Source: Stutzerimonas stutzeri
GTDB lineage: Bacteria > Pseudomonadota > Gammaproteobacteria > Pseudomonadales > Pseudomonadaceae
DNA: 64,000 nucleotides
Direction of reading: 5' to 3'
NCBI RefSeq assembly: GCF_024448985.1
Contig: NZ_JAMOII010000002.1
Location: forward strand, 248,001 to 312,000
A model generated the notes under the pieces. The model saw only the letters and a list, made by a program, of their open reading frames with translations. It ran no database searches and had not been told where the DNA came from. A program made the position numbers and the translations under genes. Positions 53,852-64,000 of the stretch are shown in pieces (the stretch's first letter is position 1; each line of letters starts with the position of its first letter).

Positions 53852-55366
53852 TCAGGCGTGCGCCTCGTTCAACTTGGCGCGACGGCGCTGACGCCACCAG
53901 CGAAGGCCGGGCATTGCCAGCATCAGTGCGGCCATCGCCCACAGCACCAGGGTGATCGGGCTGCTCCAGAGGATGCCGAGTTCACCGGCAGAAATCGACA
54001 GCGCGCGGCGCAGGTTGTCTTCCATCATCTCGCCGAGGACGAAGCCGAGAATCAGCGCCGACAGCGGGAATTCCAGCTTGCGCAGCAGATAGCCGAACAC
54101 CCCGAGACCGACCATCAGCACCAGGTCGAACGTAGTGCTGTGCACCGAGTAGACCCCGACCACACTGATGGCCGTGATGGCCGGTACCAATACCCAGTTG
54201 GGCACGCTGAGCATCTTGGAGAACAGCCCGACCAGCGGAATGTTCATCACCAGCAGGATCACGTTGCCGATGAACAGCGAGGCGATCAGACCCCAGACCA
54301 CGTCGGGCTGCTGTTCGAACAGCAGCGGACCGGGCGTGATGTTGTATAGCGTCAGCGCGCCGATCATCACCGCCGTGGTACCAGAGCCGGGCACGCCCAG
54401 AGTCAGCATCGGAATCAGCGATCCGCAGGCGGAGGCGTTGTTGGCGGCTTCCGGGGCGGCCAGGCCACGCAAGTCGCCATCACCGAATCGGCCCTTTTCG
54501 CCGGCCATGCGCTTTTCGCTCATGTAGGTCATGGCACTGGCGATGGTGGCACCGGCGCCGGGCAGGGTGCCGATGACGAACCCGGCCAGGGCGCTGCGCA
54601 CCATGGTCCAGAACGTCAGGCAGAACTCCTTGAAGTTGAACAGCAGGCGTCCGCTGGCCTTGACCGCCTTCTGCCCGCTGTGGGTCTTTTCCAGCATCAG
54701 CAGCACTTCGCTGACGCTGAAGAAACCGATCACCACGATGACGAATTGGATGCCATCCGACAGGCTGACGCTACCGAAGGTGAAGCGATAGACGCCAGTG
54801 GTCGAGTCCACGCCAACCGTGGCCAGGCCCAGGCCGATCAGCGCCGCCATCAGAGTTTTCACCGGCTTGTCACCGACCATGCCGCCAAGACAGGCAATGG
54901 CAAAGATCATCAGCACGAAATATTCCGCAGGGCCGAAGGCCACCGCCCATTTCGCCAGCAGCGGAGCGAACAGCACCACGCCGCAGGTGGCGATGATGCT
55001 GCCGATGAACGAGCTGACCGCGGACAGCGACAATGCGATACCGGCTTTGCCCTGACGCGCCAGCGGGTAACCGTCGAGCGTGGTCATCACGGCTGCGGCA
55101 TCGCCCGGCACATTGAGCAGAATTGCAGAGATACGGCCGCCGTATTCGCAGCCCAGATACACCGCGGCCAGCAGGATCAGTGCGGTTTCCGGTGGCAGGC
55201 CCAGGGCAAAGGCCAGTGGCAGCAGCAAGGCCACGCCATTGATTGGCCCCAGCCCCGGCAGCAGCCCGACAACAGTGCCAACGAAGGCGCCGAACAGCGC
55301 TACCAGCAGGTTGGTCGGTCGAGTGGCGACATCGAAGCCCTGCATTAAAAAGTTCAAGGTTTCCAT
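53852..55366 (-). CDS. tctA: TctA, large permease of a tripartite tricarboxylate transporter
   Basis: Inner-membrane protein of 504 residues with about 12 helices. The family glycine-rich motifs are GLLPGLGPINGVALLLPLAF at about 37-56 and GTLPGAGATIASAMTYMSEKRM in the second repeat. With TctB and the periplasmic TctC it imports citrate or other tri- and dicarboxylates using an ion gradient. It lies two bases after tctB and is followed by an AbrB-type gene. Confidence 0.96.
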   Translation of the reverse strand: METLNFLMQGFDVATRPTNLLVALFGAFVGTVVGLLPGLGPINGVALLLPLAFALGLPPETALILLAAVYLGCEYGGRISAILLNVPGDAAAVMTTLDGYPLARQGKAGIALSLSAVSSFIGSIIATCGVVLFAPLLAKWAVAFGPAEYFVLMIFAIACLGGMVGDKPVKTLMAALIGLGLATVGVDSTTGVYRFTFGSVSLSDGIQFVIVVIGFFSVSEVLLMLEKTHSGQKAVKASGRLLFNFKEFCLTFWTMVRSALAGFVIGTLPGAGATIASAMTYMSEKRMAGEKGRFGDGDLRGLAAPEAANNASACGSLIPMLTLGVPGSGTTAVMIGALTLYNITPGPLLFEQQPDVVWGLIASLFIGNVILLVMNIPLVGLFSKMLSVPNWVLVPAITAISVVGVYSVHSTTFDLVLMVGLGVFGYLLRKLEFPLSALILGFVLGEMMEDNLRRALSISAGELGILWSSPITLVLWAMAALMLAMPGLRWWRQRRRAKLNEAHA

Positions 55367-55368
55367 TT

Positions 55369-55812
55369 TCAGCTCTCCAGCAAGCGCAGCACGCCGAGCG
55401 GCAGCGGCACATCAAGCAATAGGTCGAACAGGCCGAAGAGCAGCACGCCCATCAGTACGCCACTGATCAGGCAGGGCCACAGGCGTCCGTTGAACAGCAG
55501 GCCCAAGGCGAAGGTGGCCAGTGCCGTGGTAATGACGAAGCCGAGCGTCTCGAACAACAGCGCGTAGCCCAGCAGGACCAGCACGCAAAACAGGGCTCGC
55601 CGGGCCATCATCCAGTCGAACGGCGGCGTCGGTTCCCCGTGCGGTTTGCAGAGCAGCCAGAGCGCGCCGCAGCCCATCAGAAACAGCAGCAGAAGCGGGT
55701 AGGCGCGCGGGCCGACCGGGTCGTAGGCGAAAGGCGCCTCGAAACTCCAGGCGAGCAGCGCTAGACCGGCGCAGGCGAGCAGCCACGCCGCGGCGAAGAC
55801 ACGAACGTACAT
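55369..55812 (-). CDS. tctB: TctB, small permease subunit
   Basis: A 147-residue membrane protein with four predicted helices, the usual TctB topology (VFAAAWLLACAGLALLAWSFEAPFAYDPVGPRAYPLLL, then three more hydrophobic stretches and FDLLLDVPLPLGVLRLLE). It completes the membrane domain of the TctABC importer. Sequence conservation in TctB is low, so the assignment relies on size, topology and its place between tctC and tctA. Confidence 0.93.
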   Translation of the reverse strand: MYVRVFAAAWLLACAGLALLAWSFEAPFAYDPVGPRAYPLLLLFLMGCGALWLLCKPHGEPTPPFDWMMARRALFCVLVLLGYALLFETLGFVITTALATFALGLLFNGRLWPCLISGVLMGVLLFGLFDLLLDVPLPLGVLRLLES

Positions 55813-55874
55813 GGGGGGTTACCTCGAGAGGAGCCGGCAGCGGCTCCCATCCGGAAGCCGCTGCCAGCGGGGTG

Positions 55875-56849
55875 TTACTTGACCAGGCCGAACTCGGCGG
55901 CGAGTGCCTTGTAATCAGTGACCTGCTGGTCGACGAACGCTTTGAGCTCGTCACCGGTCATCGACAGCGGGAAGAGATCACGCTGCTCGCGCAGCTTGGC
56001 GAAATCGTCTGCGGCGAGCAGGCTGTCGAACCGGGTCTTCCACCAGTTGAAATCCTCGTCGCTGACCTCAGGGCCCATGTAGAAGCCGCGAATCACCGGC
56101 CAGCTGATGTCGTAACCCTGTTCCTTGGCGGTCGGAATGCCCGACAGCTTGCCGGGAAGACGGTCATCGGACAGCACCGCGAGGACGCGTACCTTGCCGG
56201 CGTCGAGCTGCGGTGCGACCTCACCCAACCCGCTGCTGGTGACCTGGACATGACCGCCGAGCATGGTGGTGAGGGTTTCGCCGCCGCCTTCGAACGCGAC
56301 ATAACGCAGCTTCTTCGGATCAACACCGGCGGCACGGGCGATCAGCGCGGTCTGCATCCAATCCTGACCACCGATGGTGGCACCGGCGCCAAACACCACG
56401 CTGGCAGGGTCTTTCTTAACCGCATCGATCAGTTCATCGAGATTCTGATAGGGCGCGTCGGCACGTACCGAGATGGCGCCATAGTCGGTGCCGATACCGG
56501 CCAGCCAGCGCACGTTGGTTTCGTCGTAACGACCAAACTTGCCCTGCGCCAGGTTCAGCAGCGAGCCGCTGGAGAAGGCCGTGATGGTCGCCGGATCGGC
56601 GGCGCGCTGAGCGATCACTGCGTTGTAGGCCACCGCGCCGACACCGCCGGGCATGTAGGTGACGCGCATCGGTGCTTCGAGCAGACCTTCGTCCTTTAGG
56701 CCGCTCTGGGCCAGTTTGCAGGTCAGGTCGAAGCCGCCGCCGGGCTTGGCCGGGGCGATGCACTCGGGGCGCTTGGGCTCGGCGAACAACTGGCTGGACA
56801 GGACCAGACAGGATGAGAGCAGGGCGATACGGCGGATAGCAATTTTCAT
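55875..56849 (-). CDS. tctC: TctC, Bug-family periplasmic binding protein
   Basis: A 324-residue periplasmic receptor with signal peptide (cut LFA-EP). The Bug-family pattern is CIAPAKPGGGFDLTCKL near the N-terminus and MPGGVGAVAYNAVIAQRA and GGQDWMQTALIARAAG further on. It captures a tricarboxylate such as citrate and delivers it to TctAB. It follows the porin gene on the same strand, so substrate can pass from outer membrane to cytoplasm via products of one operon. Confidence 0.95.
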   Translation of the reverse strand: MKIAIRRIALLSSCLVLSSQLFAEPKRPECIAPAKPGGGFDLTCKLAQSGLKDEGLLEAPMRVTYMPGGVGAVAYNAVIAQRAADPATITAFSSGSLLNLAQGKFGRYDETNVRWLAGIGTDYGAISVRADAPYQNLDELIDAVKKDPASVVFGAGATIGGQDWMQTALIARAAGVDPKKLRYVAFEGGGETLTTMLGGHVQVTSSGLGEVAPQLDAGKVRVLAVLSDDRLPGKLSGIPTAKEQGYDISWPVIRGFYMGPEVSDEDFNWWKTRFDSLLAADDFAKLREQRDLFPLSMTGDELKAFVDQQVTDYKALAAEFGLVK

Positions 56850-56880
56850 AGATGTCTCCTCTATTCTTATTGTGGACGGC

Positions 56881-58143
56881 TTACCAGATCGGCAGGCTGT
56901 AGCTGACGATCAGTCGATTCTCGTCGGCGTCACGGGCGAAATCGGAGCGGAACATGGCGTTGCGCATGCGCACCGCGACATTTTTCAGCGGACCGGTCTG
57001 CACGACGTACTTGAGCTCGATATCGCGTTCCCACTCGCTGCCGTTGCTGCCGCCGGTGTATTCGGCGTTGTCGCCGGAGATGTAGCGGGTCAGGAAGGTC
57101 AGACCGGGTATGCCGACAGAGGCGAAGTTGAAGTCGTAGCGGGCCTGCCAGGAGCGCTCTTCGGCGTTGGCGAAGTCGTTGATCTGGACGAAGTTGACCA
57201 GGTACGGATCGCCGCCGTCGATGTAGGCGTAACCGGTGTCGCCGTTCATCTGCTGGTAGGCCAGGCTGATCTTGTGGCCGCCGAGGCTGTAGCCGACCAT
57301 CCCGTTCCAGGCCTGGTTGTCGATCTTGCCGGCGTTGGCCGCGCCGGTGTCGTCGCTGATCATCAGCCGCAGGTCGGCGGTCAGCTCGGAGGCTTCGCCC
57401 AGCGGCCGGACCATTTGCAGATTAAAGAAGTGCTGACGGTAGATGTCGTCCAGCTCCGCCGCGTAATAGGTGCCGGTGAACTGATCGCTGAAGGCGTACT
57501 TGGCGCCGACGAAGGTCAGATGATCGGCTTCGGCGGAGCTGTCGAAACGACCGTTCTTGTTGTTCAGCTGCAGGTCCTGGGAGTTGGTCGAGGCGCGGTC
57601 GATGACCTTGTCGAGACGCCCACCGCTCAGGGTCAGGCCGGTCACGTCCTGAGACACCAGCATCGTGCCTTCGAACACCTGGGGCAGGGTGCGGCTGTCG
57701 CTGGCCATCACCACCGGAGTTTCGGGGATGTGGCTGCCGTAGCGCAGCTCCGTCTCGGAAATCTTCGCCTTGGCCGTCAGCCCGAGGCGGCTGAATTCGT
57801 CCGGGGTGCTGCCATCGTCATGCACCGGGAGCAGATCGGTGCCGGTGCGGCCGCCGCCGGAGTCCAGCTTGATGCCGAGCATGCCCATGGCATCGAGGCC
57901 GAAGCCCACGGTACCTTCGGTGAAACCGGATTCGATATTGAGCAGAAAGCCCTGCGACCATTCCTCGCGTTTGGACTGGCCATCCCCTTCGCGAAAATCA
58001 CGATTGAGGTAGATATTGTGAGTCTGCAGCGTGGCGCTGCTATCTTCGATGAAATCGGCCTGCGCCAGGGGCGACAGCGAGGCGGCTGCGACGGCGAGGG
58101 TAAGGCGAGCGTATGTGGGTTTAGTTCTGACGGCAGTCAGCAT
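56881..58143 (-). CDS. opdH: OprD-family outer-membrane porin (OpdH-like)
   Basis: A 420-residue beta-barrel protein with signal peptide (cut AQA-DF). OprD features are ADFIEDSSATLQTHNIYLNRDF at the mature start, EWSQGFLLNIESGFTEGTVGFGLDAMGMLGIKLD, GGRTGTDLLP and a C-terminal aromatic residue (YSLPIW). In P. aeruginosa the porin next to tctCBA-tctDE is OpdH, for tricarboxylates, and the order here is the same. ATG 58143 follows GGAG; an upstream frame to 58206 lacks a signal peptide at its start. Confidence 0.93.
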   Translation of the reverse strand: MLTAVRTKPTYARLTLAVAAASLSPLAQADFIEDSSATLQTHNIYLNRDFREGDGQSKREEWSQGFLLNIESGFTEGTVGFGLDAMGMLGIKLDSGGGRTGTDLLPVHDDGSTPDEFSRLGLTAKAKISETELRYGSHIPETPVVMASDSRTLPQVFEGTMLVSQDVTGLTLSGGRLDKVIDRASTNSQDLQLNNKNGRFDSSAEADHLTFVGAKYAFSDQFTGTYYAAELDDIYRQHFFNLQMVRPLGEASELTADLRLMISDDTGAANAGKIDNQAWNGMVGYSLGGHKISLAYQQMNGDTGYAYIDGGDPYLVNFVQINDFANAEERSWQARYDFNFASVGIPGLTFLTRYISGDNAEYTGGSNGSEWERDIELKYVVQTGPLKNVAVRMRNAMFRSDFARDADENRLIVSYSLPIW

Positions 58144-58189
58144 CTTGTCTCTCCATTCTTGTTTTTGTTGTGACGGCGATGTGCCGTAG

Positions 58190-58258
58190 CAGGTGGTTCG
58201 AGCCACCTGTATGCGATCCTAGGCGGCGAAACTTTCGCCAGGCTTTCAGGCGTGAAAG
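58190..58258. promoter_or_regulatory. Dyads in the opdH/tctD divergent region
   Basis: CAGGTGG-TTCGAG-CCACCTG (58190-58209) and CTTTCA-GGCG-TGAAAG (58243-58258) are perfect inverted repeats between the divergent porin-transporter operon and tctDE. A third small dyad GAAA-C-TTTC lies at 58228-58236. One or more may bind the response regulator TctD, which controls the porin and transporter in related species. The site assignment is inference. Confidence 0.5.
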
Positions 58259-58321
58259 CAGCGTGCAGCGTGCCTTGTCGCTACACTTGCGCTCCTTTCC
58301 GTGTGTGGCAGAGGACAGGCA

Positions 58322-58993
58322 ATGCGGATTCTTCTGGTCGAGGACCATCCCCAACTGGCTGAAAGCGTCGCCCAGGCGTTGCGCGCCGGCGGATGGACGG
58401 TGGACCTGCTCAACGATGGCGTGGCGGCCGATCTGGCCCTGGCGACCGAGGATTACGCGCTGGCGATTCTCGACGTCGGGCTGCCTCGGCTCGACGGCTT
58501 TGAGGTCCTGGCGAGGCTGCGTGAACGCGGCAAGACGCTACCGGTCCTCATGCTCACCGCGCGTGGCGAGGTCACTGATCGCGTACACGGGCTCAATCTC
58601 GGTGCCGACGATTATCTGGCCAAGCCGTTCGAGCTGTCCGAACTCGAAGCGCGGGTCAAAGCGCTGTTGCGGCGCAGCGTCGGTGGCGGCGAACGCCAGC
58701 AGCGTTGCGGCGTGCTGGCTCATGATCTGGATGCCCGGCGCTTCACCCTGGCTGGCGAGCCGCTGGCGCTGACCTCGCGCGAGCAAGGTGTGCTCGAGGC
58801 GTTGATCGCCCGTCCTGGGCGGGTAATGAGCAAGGATCAGCTCGCCGCGCAGGTCTTCGGCCTGGACGAGGACGCCAGCGCCGACGCCATCGAGATCTAC
58901 ATCCACCGTCTGCGCAAGAAGCTCGAGGGTCAGCCGGTGCGTATCGTCACCTTCCGGGGCCTCGGCTATCTGCTCGAGGCCACCGATGGCTGA
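58322..58993 (+). CDS. tctD: TctD, OmpR-family response regulator
   Basis: A 223-residue regulator with a receiver domain (phospho-acceptor Asp51 in LAILDVGLPRLDG, Lys in LAKPF) and a C-terminal winged helix (LTSREQGVLEALIARPGRVMSKDQLAAQVFG, HRLRKKLEG). It responds to TctE to switch the tricarboxylate porin and transporter. The ATG at 58322 is the standard start. It overlaps tctE by eight bases. Confidence 0.96.
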   Translation: MRILLVEDHPQLAESVAQALRAGGWTVDLLNDGVAADLALATEDYALAILDVGLPRLDGFEVLARLRERGKTLPVLMLTARGEVTDRVHGLNLGADDYLAKPFELSELEARVKALLRRSVGGGERQQRCGVLAHDLDARRFTLAGEPLALTSREQGVLEALIARPGRVMSKDQLAAQVFGLDEDASADAIEIYIHRLRKKLEGQPVRIVTFRGLGYLLEATDG

Positions 58994-60377
58994 GGTCGGC
59001 AGCCTGCGCGGGAGGCTGCTGCGCCGGCTGGCGGTGCTGCTGGCGCTGTTGCTGCTGTTCAGCGGCTGGAGCGCTTACTGGAATGGCCGCGCCGCCGCCG
59101 ATACCGCCTATGACCGCACGCTGCTGGCTTCGGCCCGCGCCATTGCCGACGGACTGGTCGCCAATGACGGCAAGCTGCGCGCCAATGTGCCTTATGTGGC
59201 GCTGGATACCTTTGCCTATGACAGCGCCGGGCGCATCTATTACCAAGTGCTCGATATCAGTGGCCGCCTGGTCAGCGGCTACGAAGACCTTCCAGCACCA
59301 GGCGCCGAAGTCCGGCGTACCGACGACTATCCTGCGTTGGCGCGGTTCTATGACGGCGAGTTCAAGGGCGAGGGTGTGCGTCTGGTCAGTCTGTTGCAGC
59401 CGGTCAGCGAGCCGGAGCTCAACGGCATCGCCGAAATTCGCGTGGCCGAAACCCTCGGTGCCCGTGAACGCATGGCGCGCAGTCTGCTCACCGACACCCT
59501 GTGGCGGGTCGGCTTGCTGGCGATCACGGCGCTGCTGCTGGTGTGGCTGGCGGTGAGCGCCGCGCTGCGTCCGCTGGGCAAGCTCAGCGAGGCGGTCGAA
59601 CTGCGTCAGCCGGACGATTTGCGTCCGTTGCCGCTGGTCACGGTACAGCGCGAACTCAAGCCGCTGGTGGCTGCGCTCAATCATTTCACCGAACGCCTGC
59701 GCGGCCAGTTCGAGCGCCAGGCGCAGTTCATCGCCGATGCCTCGCACGAGTTACGCACGCCGCTGGCGGCGCTCAAGGCACGCATCGAGCTGGGCCTGCG
59801 CGAACAGCAACCGCAGCGCTGGCTGGAAACCCTCGAAGAAGCCGAGGCGCATACCGACCGGGTCATTCATCTGGCCAACCAGCTGCTGTCCCTGGCGCGC
59901 ATCGAAAGCGGCGCGCAGTCGATTGCCGAGGGTGGCGCGCAACGCCTCGACTTGAGCCAGCTGGCCCGCGAGCTGGGTTTGGCGATGGCCGCGTTGGCGC
60001 ACAAGCGTGGCGTCGCCATCGCCCTCGAAGCGGACCACCCGGTATGGATTCATGGCGAGCCGACGCTGCTCAGCGAGCTGCTGAGCAACCTGCTGGACAA
60101 TGCTTTGGGACATACGCCCGTTGGCGGCAACGTGGTGCTGCGGGTGAAGGAAGATGGCGTGCTGGAAGTCGAAGACGATGGTCCTGGAATCCCGCCGGAG
60201 GAGCGCGAGAAGGTCTTCGCGCGGTTCTACCGTGTGCAGCAAAAGGGGCAGGGTGCCGGGCTCGGGCTGGCCATCGTCGGCGAGATCAGCCGCGCCCATC
60301 GCGCCACCATCGAGTTGGGTCAGGGCGCGTTGGGCGGTTTGCTGGTCAGGCTGCGCTTTGCGTCGACGCTCGACTGA
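58986..60377 (+). CDS. tctE: TctE, sensor histidine kinase
   Basis: Membrane kinase of 463 residues. Two helices (about 14-31 and 170-192) bracket a periplasmic 2CSK-type sensor (RTLLASARAIADGLV, VPYVALDTFAYDSAGRIYYQV), then HAMP, the phospho-accepting His254 in ADASHELRTPLAALK, and an ATPase domain (LLSNLLDNALGHTP, VEDDGPGIPPEER, GAGLGLAIVGEISRAH). It probably senses external citrate-like acids. It overlaps tctD and converges on the truncated cyclase gene. Confidence 0.95.
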   Translation: MAEVGSLRGRLLRRLAVLLALLLLFSGWSAYWNGRAAADTAYDRTLLASARAIADGLVANDGKLRANVPYVALDTFAYDSAGRIYYQVLDISGRLVSGYEDLPAPGAEVRRTDDYPALARFYDGEFKGEGVRLVSLLQPVSEPELNGIAEIRVAETLGARERMARSLLTDTLWRVGLLAITALLLVWLAVSAALRPLGKLSEAVELRQPDDLRPLPLVTVQRELKPLVAALNHFTERLRGQFERQAQFIADASHELRTPLAALKARIELGLREQQPQRWLETLEEAEAHTDRVIHLANQLLSLARIESGAQSIAEGGAQRLDLSQLARELGLAMAALAHKRGVAIALEADHPVWIHGEPTLLSELLSNLLDNALGHTPVGGNVVLRVKEDGVLEVEDDGPGIPPEEREKVFARFYRVQQKGQGAGLGLAIVGEISRAHRATIELGQGALGGLLVRLRFASTLD

Positions 60378-60378
60378 G

Positions 60379-61071
60379 TCAGCTCGGCTCTTGCGGGTCG
60401 GCGACCTCTACTTGATTGCGGCCATTGCGTTTGGCTCGGTAGAGCGCGGCATCGGCTTCGGCAAGCAGCTGGACCGTCGAGCAAGGCGCCTGTGGGTTCA
60501 GCGTTGCCACACCGATGCTGATTGTCAGATCGATGCGGGTATCGCCGTAGGTCGGGTGCAGCTCCGCCACCGCCGCGCGGATACGCTCGGCCTGTTCGCG
60601 GGCCTGATGGCTGTCGACACCCGGTAGCGCAATGATGAACTCCTCGCCGCCGTAGCGCGCCACCACATCCCCGGCGCGCTGTCCGTGCTGTTTGAGGATG
60701 GCGGCGACCAGGCGCAGGCATTCGTCGCCGAAGGGGTGGCCATAGGTGTCATTGATCCGTTTGAAGTGGTCGATGTCCAGCAGTAGCACGGACAGTGGCG
60801 CGTCGATGCGCTGCGCGCGCCGAATCTCCTGTTCGAACATCAGATCGAAGTGGCCGCGGTTGGACAGCTGCGTCAGCGCGTCGGTAACGCTCATGCGGGT
60901 CAGTTGCGCGTTGACCTGCTCCAGCCCACGCTTGGCCTCTTCCAGCGCTTGGGTCCGTTCGAGTACGCGGGCTTCCAGTGCCTCGTTGGCGCGCATCTGC
61001 AGGTCCAGCGTCTGTTGCTGCGCGCGCAAGCGGGACTCGCGTTCCTGGGCGAGGGCCTCAGAACAACGCAT
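60379..61071 (-). pseudogene. 5'-truncated diguanylate cyclase
   Basis: A 230-residue frame carrying only a coiled coil (QTLDLQMRANEALEARVLERTQALEEAKRGLEQV) and a complete GGDEF domain: GGEEF at 141-145 and I-site RAGD at 132-135. The same coiled coil in other pseudomonads, as I recall, follows a 7TM/periplasmic sensor that is missing here. The ATG is preceded by an in-frame TAG and no ribosome site. I therefore read it as the 3' remnant of a membrane-bound cyclase. It could still make an active cytoplasmic enzyme if translated. Confidence 0.65.
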
Positions 61072-61209: not shown

Positions 61210-63603
61210 TCAGTTCCGATTTGCTATGGCCTGCTCAGCGTCGTGCGGCATCGCCTGGCCGCGCAACTGTTCGACGCGCAGCTCGGGCTGCGAACGGTTG
61301 CGTATCGCCACCCACTCCTCCAGCGCGGCCACCGAACGTGGCGGCGATATCAGATAGCCTTGGAACAGATCGCAGCCGGCCTGCAGCAGTGCGGATTGTT
61401 TTTCCAGAGTGTCCACGCCCTCGGCATTGACCCGCTTGCCCTGCGCCTGGCAGAAGGCGACGAGTGCGGTCAGGCTTTGCTGCAGTTCCGGTTGCGTCAG
61501 GCGCTGCACAATGGCCATGTCCAGCTTGATGGTGTCGGCCGGATATTCGAGCAGTTGCTGAATCGAGGTATAGCCGACGCCGAAATCGTCGATGGCCACG
61601 CGGAAGCCCGCCAGACGGATGGCCCGCACCACTTCCATGGTGTTGCTGCTCAGTTCGGCGGCGTAGGTTTCGGTCAGCTCGATCTCGATGTTGCCGGGCG
61701 CGACGCCATGGTGCGCGGCGCGTTCGATCAGGTAGCGGCAGATGTGACCGTCGGTCAATTGCGCCGACGAAACGTTGATCGCCAGAATCATGCCTTCGCC
61801 GAACAGCCTGACCAGTTCCGCATAACCTGCCAGGGCCCTGTCGATCACCCAGCTGTCGATCTTCGGAAACAGCCCGGCGCGCTCGGCGATGGGAATGAAC
61901 TCGCCCGGTGAAACTGTGCCGAGCAAGGGCGAATGCCAGCGCAGCAGCACCTCACAGCTGACCACGCTGCCGTCGCGATCCACCGCCGGCATGTAAACCA
62001 GGCGCAACTGTTCGTCGCCATCGAGCAGGCGCAGCTGTTCCTCGACGAGGCGGATGCGCTGGTTGCGTTGCTCCAACTGGGCCGAGAAGGCCACCGCGAC
62101 GTTCTTGCCCTCGGCCTTGGCCTGATACATCGCGGTGTCGGCGCGGGTCAGCAGTTGCGTGATGGAATCGGCGTCGGCGGGATAGCGGGCGGTGCCGATG
62201 CTCACACCGACCGGGTAGAGCCGGTCTTCGAGGCGGAAGCCGCTGCGGCACAGATCCAGCAAGGCATCGGTAAGTGCCGGCAAACTGTCGTACTCGGTAC
62301 CGGTCAGCAGCAGGATGGCGAACTCGTCGCCGGAGAGCCGGGCGAGCGCTGTCTCGTCCTCAGGGTGGGCCTTGCGGTGGTGCTCGAGTACGCCTTGCAT
62401 GCGTTTGGCGAGGATTCGCAGCAGGGTGTCGCCGGCATCGTGGCCGTGCTGGTCGTTCACCTGTTTGAAGTTGTCCAGATCGAGAAACAGCAGCGCCAGT
62501 TGCCGTCCGCCGCGTGCGCACTGGTTATACATGGCGGTGGCCAGCAGGCCGAAGTGGGCGCGGTTGCTGATATGGGTCAGGCTGTCGGTCCAGGAGATTT
62601 CCTGAATACGCTGCAGCGCGGCCGTGTTGCGCTCGTGCAGGGTTTTCATATTCAGCGTCAGGCGACCAATCTCGCCGCCATCGCTGGGTTCGTCCAACGC
62701 GTGGCGTTTGCCCTGCAGCAGCTCGGTGAGCTGCTGGTCGAGCCAGCTGATCGGACCGGTGACATAGTGATGGATCAACACCAGCAACAGGCCGACGGAG
62801 ATCAGGCAGATCAGCACGACGCCAAACAGAAATGCCAGCCCCAGCGTCTGCAGGCGCGCGGCAATGTAGTCGGGTGACGGCGTCAGGCGTGCGGACAGCG
62901 AGCGTGACAGCTCGATATCGGCCGATAGGCCCTGTGGCGCGGGTTTCAATTCGGATGCGATCTCCACCGTCGCACCGTATTCGGCCTCCAGGCGTTGCTT
63001 GAGGCTGATAAAGCGTTCAGGGCGCACCGCCAGTTGCAGGGCGAAGGCTTCCGCTCGCTGGCTGGGCAAAGGGCGGCTGATCGAGGCAGGCAGGATGAAA
63101 TCGGTATCCAACAACAGGCCGCCCTCGGCTGTTTCCACATAGGTCATTTCGCCGGTATGTGGCGTCTGCTTGGCCTCTCGGACAACCTGTTGCTGCGTGG
63201 CGCTCATGGTTGCGAAAGGTGACAGGCTGCTCTCGTAGTAGTAGGCCACCTCACCGCCAGGTTGGACGATGGCGAAGGACACGAATGACATGCGGGTCGT
63301 CGACAGCGAGCGAATGCTTTGCTGGATACGCAGCCCTAACGTTTCGTTACGGTAGGCGGTATTCGACTCACGCAGGAACAGCAGCAACGCTTCGCTGTTG
63401 GCAATCGAGTGGAGCACGCTGCGATTGAACGCCTCGTAATCCAGATAGGCGGATTTGAGCGCCAGCAGCTGTTGCCCCAGACGCGCCTGTTCGAGGCCCA
63501 GCAGTGAAGCGCGCTGGGTCAGGTAAGCGGTCGTTGCAGCCAGCAGCTGGATGATCAGAATGACCGGGAAGATCACCAGCAGCGTGCGTTTACCGAGCGT
63601 CAT
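61210..63603 (-). CDS. Membrane GGDEF-EAL protein (MbaA-like)
   Basis: A 797-residue inner-membrane protein: helix 1 at about 8-26, a periplasmic domain to about 252, helix 2 at about 255-278, then GGDEF (about 335-508) and EAL (about 530-780). The GGDEF site reads SGDEF (424-428), with a degenerate first Gly. The EAL residues are all present: Glu551 (EVL), Asn610, Glu642, Asp672-Asp673, Lys693, Glu728 and Gln748. It is therefore probably a cyclic-di-GMP phosphodiesterase, perhaps bifunctional. Its start overlaps the PotD-like gene by 14 bases, matching the NspS-MbaA sensor architecture. Confidence 0.93.
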   Translation of the reverse strand: MTLGKRTLLVIFPVILIIQLLAATTAYLTQRASLLGLEQARLGQQLLALKSAYLDYEAFNRSVLHSIANSEALLLFLRESNTAYRNETLGLRIQQSIRSLSTTRMSFVSFAIVQPGGEVAYYYESSLSPFATMSATQQQVVREAKQTPHTGEMTYVETAEGGLLLDTDFILPASISRPLPSQRAEAFALQLAVRPERFISLKQRLEAEYGATVEIASELKPAPQGLSADIELSRSLSARLTPSPDYIAARLQTLGLAFLFGVVLICLISVGLLLVLIHHYVTGPISWLDQQLTELLQGKRHALDEPSDGGEIGRLTLNMKTLHERNTAALQRIQEISWTDSLTHISNRAHFGLLATAMYNQCARGGRQLALLFLDLDNFKQVNDQHGHDAGDTLLRILAKRMQGVLEHHRKAHPEDETALARLSGDEFAILLLTGTEYDSLPALTDALLDLCRSGFRLEDRLYPVGVSIGTARYPADADSITQLLTRADTAMYQAKAEGKNVAVAFSAQLEQRNQRIRLVEEQLRLLDGDEQLRLVYMPAVDRDGSVVSCEVLLRWHSPLLGTVSPGEFIPIAERAGLFPKIDSWVIDRALAGYAELVRLFGEGMILAINVSSAQLTDGHICRYLIERAAHHGVAPGNIEIELTETYAAELSSNTMEVVRAIRLAGFRVAIDDFGVGYTSIQQLLEYPADTIKLDMAIVQRLTQPELQQSLTALVAFCQAQGKRVNAEGVDTLEKQSALLQAGCDLFQGYLISPPRSVAALEEWVAIRNRSQPELRVEQLRGQAMPHDAEQAIANRN

Positions 63604-64000
63604 GGGCGTTGATCAGTGCGTTGATGATGCGCCGCCGGGTCTGCGTCGCGTCCATCGGACGTGGCTCATAGACCTGGCTGTTCTGCAGTATCGCCTCGGG
63701 AGGATAGATGCTTCGATCCTGGCGGATCTCATCCGGCAGCAGCGCGATGGCCGCCGTGTTGGCCGTTGCGACACCCAGCTCGGCGGCATTCAGGGCGGCG
63801 ATTTCGGGCGTATTGATAAAGCTCAGGAAGCGGTAGGCCAGTGCCTTCTTCTGGCTATTGATCGGCACCGACAGGCAATCGACCCAAAGCAGTGTGCCTT
63901 CCTCCGGCACCACGTAGCGCCAGGGTTCGCCTTCGACGCCCTCGATCGCGTTGAGCACCTGCTGATCGCCGCTGTAGGTCAGCGCCATGTCGGCCTTGTC
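63590..64000 (-). CDS. PotD/NspS-like periplasmic polyamine-binding protein, C-terminal part
   Basis: The last 136 codons of a gene that continues beyond 64000. The visible part (MALTYSGDQQVLNAIEGVEGEPWRYVVPEEGTLLWVDCLSVPINSQKKALAYRFLSFINTPEIAALNAAELGVATAN) matches the C-terminal lobe of PotD/PotF-type receptors, with the EEGTLLWVDCLSVP strand lining the ligand cleft (Trp and Asp contact polyamines in PotD). It overlaps the downstream GGDEF-EAL gene rather than transporter genes. That suggests a signalling receptor rather than an importer subunit. Ligand not provable here. Confidence 0.82.
   Translation of the reverse strand, partial: DKADMALTYSGDQQVLNAIEGVEGEPWRYVVPEEGTLLWVDCLSVPINSQKKALAYRFLSFINTPEIAALNAAELGVATANTAAIALLPDEIRQDRSIYPPEAILQNSQVYEPRPMDATQTRRRIINALINAHDAR

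What the first reader, a model, noticed from the sequence alone, without database searches (positions are those of the whole stretch)
61210..64000. PotD-like receptor translationally coupled to a GGDEF-EAL protein: an NspS-MbaA-like polyamine/cyclic-di-GMP circuit
The PotD-like periplasmic protein gene and the membrane GGDEF-EAL gene overlap by 14 bases. In Vibrio cholerae, NspS (PotD-like) binds norspermidine or spermidine and controls MbaA, a GGDEF-EAL protein of similar size and topology. Here the periplasmic domain (about residues 30-252) and all EAL catalytic residues are present, while the GGDEF is degenerate (SGDEF). This implies a pseudomonad pathway in which an external polyamine or related cation tunes cyclic-di-GMP hydrolysis. 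Ligand and output are inferred.
Basis: partly seen in the sequence, partly recalled or inferred. Interest (0 to 1): 0.75.

Follow-up and report, generated by a model that had tools for sequence, protein, structure and literature searches.

The report
Polyamine receptor pair controlling cyclic di-GMP
Two overlapping genes encode a free-floating receptor outside the inner membrane and a membrane enzyme, very probably the known NspS-MbaA pair by which bacteria read outside polyamines to choose between swimming and biofilm; the pair is already recorded in this group of bacteria, but it seems to belong to a wider family whose receiver end is also wired to other kinds of signalling protein.

Summary
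The receptor gene, cut off by the window end, is complete in the genome (363 aa, SBP_bac_8) and overlaps a 797-aa membrane SGDEF-EAL gene by 14 nt. It is a true NspS-MbaA pair: the receptor groups with MbaA-partnered receptors (100/99) apart from transport PotD/PotF, the host's own two included. Six of eight published pocket residues are kept; a seventh is Asp to Glu. No ABC ATPase gene lies nearby. It is not new in kind: a 2023 paper already lists P. stutzeri NspS-MbaA (PMC9993111). The inference that SGDEF is degenerate, so only hydrolysis is tuned, is contradicted: S/AGDEF is the usual motif of MbaA-type partners, and SGDEF is needed for synthesis in V. cholerae (PMC8967002). Additions: the host has SpeD and SpeE genes but no NspC-class hit, so ligand polarity may differ from V. 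cholerae; one congener has an in-frame nspS deletion beside an intact mbaA; related receptors sit beside GGDEF-EAL proteins and hybrid histidine kinases, a wider family I did not find described.

The parts
63590..64000 (-). nspS, 3' part (136 codons plus stop); the gene continues to G000:C2:312681 (363 aa, locus L009:3091-4182:-)
61210..63603 (-). mbaA, 797-aa membrane SGDEF-EAL protein
63590..63603 (-). 14-nt overlap: mbaA ATG lies inside the end of nspS (translational coupling inferred)
62854..63516 (-). MbaA periplasmic domain (residues about 30-250), possibly a distant relative of the dCache-type sensors beside related receptors
62101..62592 (-). GGDEF domain (residues 338-501)
62320..62334 (-). 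SGDEF motif (residues 424-428); the RxxD inhibition site is absent by inspection
61339..62016 (-). EAL domain (residues 530-755)
61945..61953 (-). EVL form of the EAL motif (residues 551-553), as reported for V. cholerae MbaA
   Evidence: PMC9993111

Best explanation
This is a pseudomonad (Stutzerimonas) NspS-MbaA pair. NspS, a periplasmic PotD-like protein that no longer serves a transporter, binds an external polyamine. Its ligand state sets whether it docks on the periplasmic domain of the membrane protein MbaA. Docked MbaA favours c-di-GMP synthesis (SGDEF half) and undocked MbaA favours hydrolysis (EVL half), so outside polyamine tunes the biofilm/motility choice in both directions. Shown here: genes, overlap, ancestry, conserved pocket and catalytic residues, no adjacent ABC transporter ATPase. 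Inferred from V. cholerae: ligand class, docking, two-way enzyme switch. Unknown: which polyamine gives which sign in this host, which carries spermidine-synthesis genes and no NspC-class decarboxylase.
For: Tree: the window's NspS falls in a 42-row group (100/99) of MbaA-type receptors, apart from 16 transport-type SBPs that include the host's own PotF-like pair. Published V. cholerae pocket positions fit Vibrio proxies L078, L108 and L115 with exact spacing, 8 of 8 (the other two of the five Vibrio proteins tried, L109 and L113, did not reach 6 of 8 at any single offset). The window's protein has W43, D72, E91, L134, Y236, D239, W266, D268. SGDEF and the phosphodiesterase residues are invariant in 13 MbaA aligned, all of them drawn from loci with SGDEF. 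Overlap 14 nt in 30 of 30 genus loci. nspS and mbaA co-occur. ABC ATPase ORF in 2 of 16 named sensor-partnered loci, both near the end of the flank, against 42 of 64 other named PotD-like loci taken as transport type; none in L009 or the last 12 kb of the window. V. cholerae data: PMC8079147, PMC8967002 (passages). SpeD- and SpeE-type genes present, no NspC-class hit.
Against: Two of eight pocket residues differ (D to E, F to L), so norspermidine may not be the ligand. Identity to seven Vibrio NspS is only 29-36% and to four Vibrio MbaA 31-32%. No binding or c-di-GMP data for a pseudomonad were found. One same-genus species has lost nspS while keeping mbaA, so MbaA may have some use without the receptor.
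Confidence: 0.8

Rival explanations
1. The receptor is an ordinary polyamine transport binding protein that happens to sit beside a c-di-GMP gene and works with a potABC transporter encoded elsewhere.
For: It matches PotD/PotF family models, though far below their cut-offs (104.7 of 582 and 89.6 of 636 bits); most solved relatives found are named as transport or polyamine-binding periplasmic proteins.
Against: Separate group from the host's own PotF-like pair at C2:132586-134959, to which it is 23-24% identical; 14-nt overlap kept across the genus; co-occurrence with mbaA; no ABC ATPase nearby.
Confidence: 0.05
2. The pair works: the SGDEF domain is dead or merely regulatory and only c-di-GMP hydrolysis is tuned.
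For: First Gly is changed; the purified cytoplasmic part of V. cholerae MbaA showed only phosphodiesterase activity in vitro (PMC8079147 passage); one same-genus MbaA has YGDEF (L026); a Vibrio paralogue has lost the motif but kept EAL (L195).
Against: SGDEF in 29 of 30 genus loci and in 13 of 13 full MbaA aligned (all SGDEF loci); outside the genus 16 of 21 motif-bearing MbaA-type partners have AGDEF and 5 SGDEF, so D, E and F are kept. In V. cholerae the D426A/E427A form loses synthesis.
Confidence: 0.12
3. The receptor senses something other than a polyamine, for instance another di-cationic metabolite.
For: E91 and L134 replace D90 and F131; that few residues set specificity here is inference.
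Against: W43, D72, Y236, D239, W266 and D268 are kept in 30 of 30 genus sequences, own included.
Confidence: 0.12

Closest known systems
V. cholerae NspS-MbaA
   Same: Gene order, overlap, SGDEF and EVL motifs, six of eight pocket residues identical, no pot genes reported among the neighbours, similar size (PMC9993111, PMC8079147)
   Different: 14-nt overlap here; in Vibrio 16 bp by the paper's count, 17 by mine; D90 to E, F131 to L; host has SpeD/SpeE genes and no NspC-class hit
S. meliloti NspS-MbaA
   Same: SGDEF, coupled genes, response to outside polyamines shown by nspS mutant phenotypes (PMC9993111, abstract passages)
   Different: 3-bp overlap; the paper reports all eight pocket residues kept there, whereas the three named Rhizobiaceae pairs held here have Gly at position 91 and Leu at 134
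Published Pseudomonas stutzeri NspS-MbaA cluster (PMC9993111, text on Fig. 3)
   Same: Almost certainly the same locus family; 13-bp overlap by their count, 14 by mine
   Different: The section read gives no residue or functional analysis of it
Other receptors stimulated by binding proteins, such as ScrB-ScrC, LuxP-LuxQ and TorT-TorS (names recalled; the general mechanism is in passages of PMC9602780)
   Same: A periplasmic binding protein acts on a membrane signalling protein
   Different: Different binding-protein families and sensor domains (recalled, not tested)

Membership tests
NspS-MbaA | PotD-like SBP gene directly upstream of and coupled to a membrane GGDEF-EAL gene | tested here: met
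   (coupling itself inferred from the overlap)
NspS-MbaA | SBP branches with NspS-type receptors, not with transport PotD/PotF | tested here: met
   support 100/99; V. cholerae itself was not in hand, Vibrio proxies fit its published residue spacing
NspS-MbaA | Eight norspermidine-contact residues predicted for V. cholerae NspS | tested here: inconclusive
   6 of 8 identical, 1 conservative, 1 changed
NspS-MbaA | SGDEF motif without RxxD site, EAL/EVL with catalytic residues | tested here: met
   RxxD by inspection
NspS-MbaA | No pot transporter genes beside the receptor | tested here: met
   by a motif test for ABC ATPases; permeases not searched separately
NspS-MbaA | Polyamine binding by NspS and two-way control of c-di-GMP | not testable with these tools
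   needs binding and reporter assays
PotD/PotF transport binding proteins | Linked to pot ABC genes and clusters with transport SBPs | tested here: not met

The most novel reading that the evidence does not exclude
NspS-MbaA is one branch of a wider receptor system. One front end, a PotD-like binding protein plus a dCache-type membrane sensor encoded just downstream, is joined to at least three outputs: SGDEF/AGDEF-EAL (MbaA), canonical HAMP-GGDEF-EAL, and hybrid histidine kinases with receiver and Hpt domains. External polyamines, or related cations, may therefore feed phosphorelays as well as c-di-GMP in many proteobacteria. In Stutzerimonas, which carries spermidine- and not norspermidine-synthesis genes, the sign of the response may be swapped relative to V. 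cholerae, so that each lineage reads its own polyamine as a kin or lysis signal.
Probability: 0.45. Interest if true: 0.65.

Novelty: new member of a known kind. Interest (0 to 1): 0.45.

Why it matters
It places a well-studied Vibrio polyamine-to-biofilm circuit in a tractable soil and water bacterium whose own polyamine probably differs. That makes a clean question testable: is the circuit tuned to the cell's own polyamine, or to norspermidine whoever makes it? The in-frame nspS deletion in a congener offers a natural receptor-less comparison. The same kind of receptor beside histidine kinases would give a set of unassigned two-component systems a likely class of signal.

Tried and rejected
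Rejected: transport role; dead SGDEF (and papers); a link between own norspermidine synthesis and carriage of nspS. For the last: nspS+ NspC-like+ 22, nspS+ NspC-like- 16, nspS- NspC-like+ 13, neither 5, of 56 genomes, p = 0.38. I counted E below 1e-60 as NspC-like: 34 genomes at 394.9-404.5 bits and one fragment at 234.1. None of the 56 is over the curated cut-off of 409, so these may be carboxyspermidine decarboxylases.

Led nowhere: structure models of both proteins (tool off), so I could not test docking or whether Cys126 and Cys269 meet. No V. cholerae sequence was held; Vibrio proxies were used. Absence searches in papers cover one open-licence library.

A control against my reading: the dCache kinship of MbaA is weaker than the full-length profile scores suggest. 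Cut to the periplasmic part, the match falls from E 4.6e-13 (probability 98%) to 3.5e-5 (72%) against the GGDEF-type partners, and from 1.1e-12 (98%) to 4.3e-6 (87%) against the kinase-type partners; the N-terminal stretches of about 45 to 60 residues alone give 1.3e-7 and 2e-5. Reversed-sequence controls gave probabilities under 5%. This lowered the novel case from 0.5 to 0.45. Pfam's dCache_1 is not reported for the window's MbaA, and of the dCache_1 scores printed for other partners only L192 (48.6) is over Pfam's cut-off of 45 bits.

Rows left out. Tree: L085, L087, L093, L096 and L097 were dropped (over-long ORFs or doubtful); 9 of 33 same-genus sequences and 9 of 64 named transport-type loci were used. 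Partner domain scan: 41 of the 84 partner ORFs listed. Partner count: of 61 loci outside the genus, 20 gave no motif in at most 1.5 kb. Of these, L072, L080, L082, L089 and L091 have sensor or output domains by Pfam, L077 has an MbaA-like hit, L085 and L100 have sensor-like N-termini by eye, and L064 has a 7TMR-DISM protein 142 bases on. The other 11 show no same-strand partner motif; L083 has a kinase motif on the opposite strand, and L059 and L097 have under 350 bases left. L089 and L100 carry the tree label HK by kinship of the N-terminus only.

Full report
What is there. The window is G000:C2:248001-312000 of a 4.23-Mb draft genome in 52 contigs. The closest named relative of the receptor found is Stutzerimonas stutzeri 28a39, 98% identical. 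On the minus strand, 61210-63603 encodes a 797-aa protein with two strongly hydrophobic stretches, GGDEF (338-501) and EAL (530-755). The receptor ORF at its 5' side runs off the window. Fetched whole, it is 363 aa and matches SBP_bac_8. The two overlap by 14 nt, and so do the pairs in all 30 same-genus loci held, own included.

Is the pairing real? In 56 same-genus genomes, own included, a close NspS (63% identity or more; in G022 as three fragments at 70-77%) is found in 38 and the MbaA N-terminus in 39. Presence agrees in 55 of 56 (p = 1.8e-13). The exception, G042, has an open mbaA of 790 aa from an upstream TTG, 787 from the conserved ATG, with the catalytic residues kept. Its nspS keeps the signal-peptide region and the last codons, including the overlap with the mbaA start, but has lost the middle; a 59-codon frame remains. 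In V. cholerae an nspS deletion leaves MbaA a constitutive phosphodiesterase (PMC8079147 passage). This species may be a natural example, which is inference.

Wider spread with the NspS protein at E <= 1e-38: 40 of 390 genomes in the order sample, 9 of 369 in the class sample, 33 of 398 in the phylum sample (samples overlap and include the host). These hits include transport-type and other receptors described below, so they are not counts of NspS-MbaA.

Receptor or transporter? A maximum-likelihood tree of 89 binding proteins splits into two sides, root drawn at midpoint only. One side, 42 rows at 100/99, holds the window's protein and Vibrio, rhizobial and other MbaA-type receptors, two Vibrio receptors whose partner lacks the GGDEF motif (L080, L082; an EAL domain was confirmed in the second, as L195) and one with no partner seen (L061). 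The other side holds 16 transport-type proteins (100/100), including the host's own PotF-like pair, and 31 further proteins, 27 of them labelled as beside GGDEF-type (15) or kinase-type (12) sensors. Within the first side Stutzerimonas groups with G378 of the same family (98/80) and then with rhizobial pairs (95/80). No ABC ATPase ORF lies in L009, which reaches 11 kb upstream of nspS, or in the last 12 kb of the window; the only one found in the window is at 152-1123. 2 of 16 named sensor-partnered loci show one, near the far end of the flank, against 42 of 64 other named PotD-like loci (a motif test).

Ligand site. PMC9993111 lists eight V. cholerae NspS residues predicted to touch norspermidine. 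Their spacing fits three Vibrio proxies exactly, 8 of 8. In the window's protein six are identical, D90 is E91 and F131 is L134. In 17 of 19 transport-type proteins of the table the second and third positions are Glu and Ser. Among 30 genus sequences all keep the six, and 29 have E91; L026 has Gly at 91 and also YGDEF in its MbaA. Two cysteines, C126 and C269, occur together in 66 of 66 receptors of the MbaA-type side and in none of 55 others in the alignment. Whether they form a disulphide is untested.

Enzyme. SGDEF is invariant in the 13 full MbaA aligned, from Stutzerimonas, rhizobia, Marinomonas and Vibrio, all drawn from loci with SGDEF, and is in 29 of 30 genus loci. In loci outside the genus, held only for about 500 residues, AGDEF is commoner: 16 AGDEF to 5 SGDEF. 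The phosphodiesterase residues are invariant in the 13. In V. cholerae SGDEF is needed for synthesis and EVL for hydrolysis, and both are required for the polyamine response (PMC8079147, PMC8967002 passages).

Which polyamine? The host has SpeE-type (222.9 bits) and SpeD-type (56.2 bits) genes and no NspC-class hit (best E 5.7e-9). V. cholerae makes norspermidine and reads it as a kin lysis signal (PMC10914755 passages). If Stutzerimonas NspS keeps the Vibrio preference it senses others' norspermidine; if retuned, its own spermidine. Across the genus, NspC-like genes and nspS are not associated (p = 0.38).

A wider family. Among 61 receptor loci outside the genus, the downstream gene carries S/AGDEF in 21, GGDEF in 10 and a histidine-kinase box in 10; 20 showed no motif within the at most 1.5 kb held (motif test). 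Of 41 partners scanned, 24 match GGDEF, 25 HAMP, 22 dCache_1 and 12 HisKA. Full-length or longer partners: HAMP, GGDEF and EAL in L110, L111, L112 and L117, with dCache_1 in the first three; hybrid kinases with HisKA, HATPase, receiver and Hpt in L114, L192 and L196, with dCache_1 in all three and HAMP in L114 and L196; a kinase with dCache_1, cut by the stretch, in L193; a HAMP kinase without a dCache_1 match in L194. Most of these dCache_1 scores are below the curated cut-off. In six loci (L081, L086, L088, L095, L096, L099) the kinase gene can start 4 nt inside the receptor gene by longest-ORF reading. Profile comparison of N-termini links GGDEF-type and kinase-type partners firmly (E 7.9e-83 full, 8.6e-68 periplasmic part). 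The link of MbaA to either is clear at full length (4.6e-13 and 1.1e-12) but only suggestive for the periplasmic part alone (probability 72% and 87%). I found no paper describing kinase-linked PotD-like receptors; the searches cover one open-licence library, and for most papers only the listing was seen. PMC11113362 (start of abstract in a listing) says that many sensor kinases activated by binding proteins are encoded beside them, so the principle is known.

What is already known. PMC9993111 (section 17 read) found NspS-MbaA in 222 of 16,076 proteobacterial genomes, including 24 P. stutzeri strains, with a 13-bp overlap in Pseudomonas. The locus is thus a closer look at a known kind, not a discovery. 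The interest lies in the ligand-polarity question, the natural nspS deletion and the likely sharing of the front end with other outputs.

Noticed in passing
window 60379-61071 (-): The 230-aa GGDEF gene downstream of mbaA is a 403-codon in-frame deletion form of a 633-aa 7TMR-DISM diguanylate cyclase that is full length in two close relatives (L101, L189). The sensor and membrane part are gone, the GGEEF domain is kept, and the two alignment pieces overlap by 8 nt at the junction, suggesting a short direct repeat. It may be an untethered cyclase in this strain.
   Followed up: partly
L188:1147-3920: G042 keeps an open mbaA behind an in-frame deletion within nspS (59-aa remnant), coupling overlap preserved.
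   Followed up: yes
L026: Same-genus pair with both a pocket change (Gly at position 91) and YGDEF in place of SGDEF.
   Followed up: no
L080, L082, L195: Vibrio second-type pairs: NspS-side receptor with a partner whose GGDEF motif is not found; in L195 (the longer stretch of L082) the EAL domain is kept.
   Followed up: partly
NspS residues C126 and C269 (L009:3091-4182:-): Cysteine pair present in 66 of 66 MbaA-type receptors and in none of 55 other binding proteins aligned.
   Followed up: no
L194: Receptor and histidine kinase pair lies between a response regulator with an HD_5 domain (HD-GYP type by inspection) and a FIST-domain protein, hinting at a c-di-GMP output by another route.
   Followed up: no
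window 53852-60377: Apparent tctABC-type transporter genes with an outer-membrane porin (names by inspection) and a two-component pair; no evident link to polyamines.
   Followed up: no
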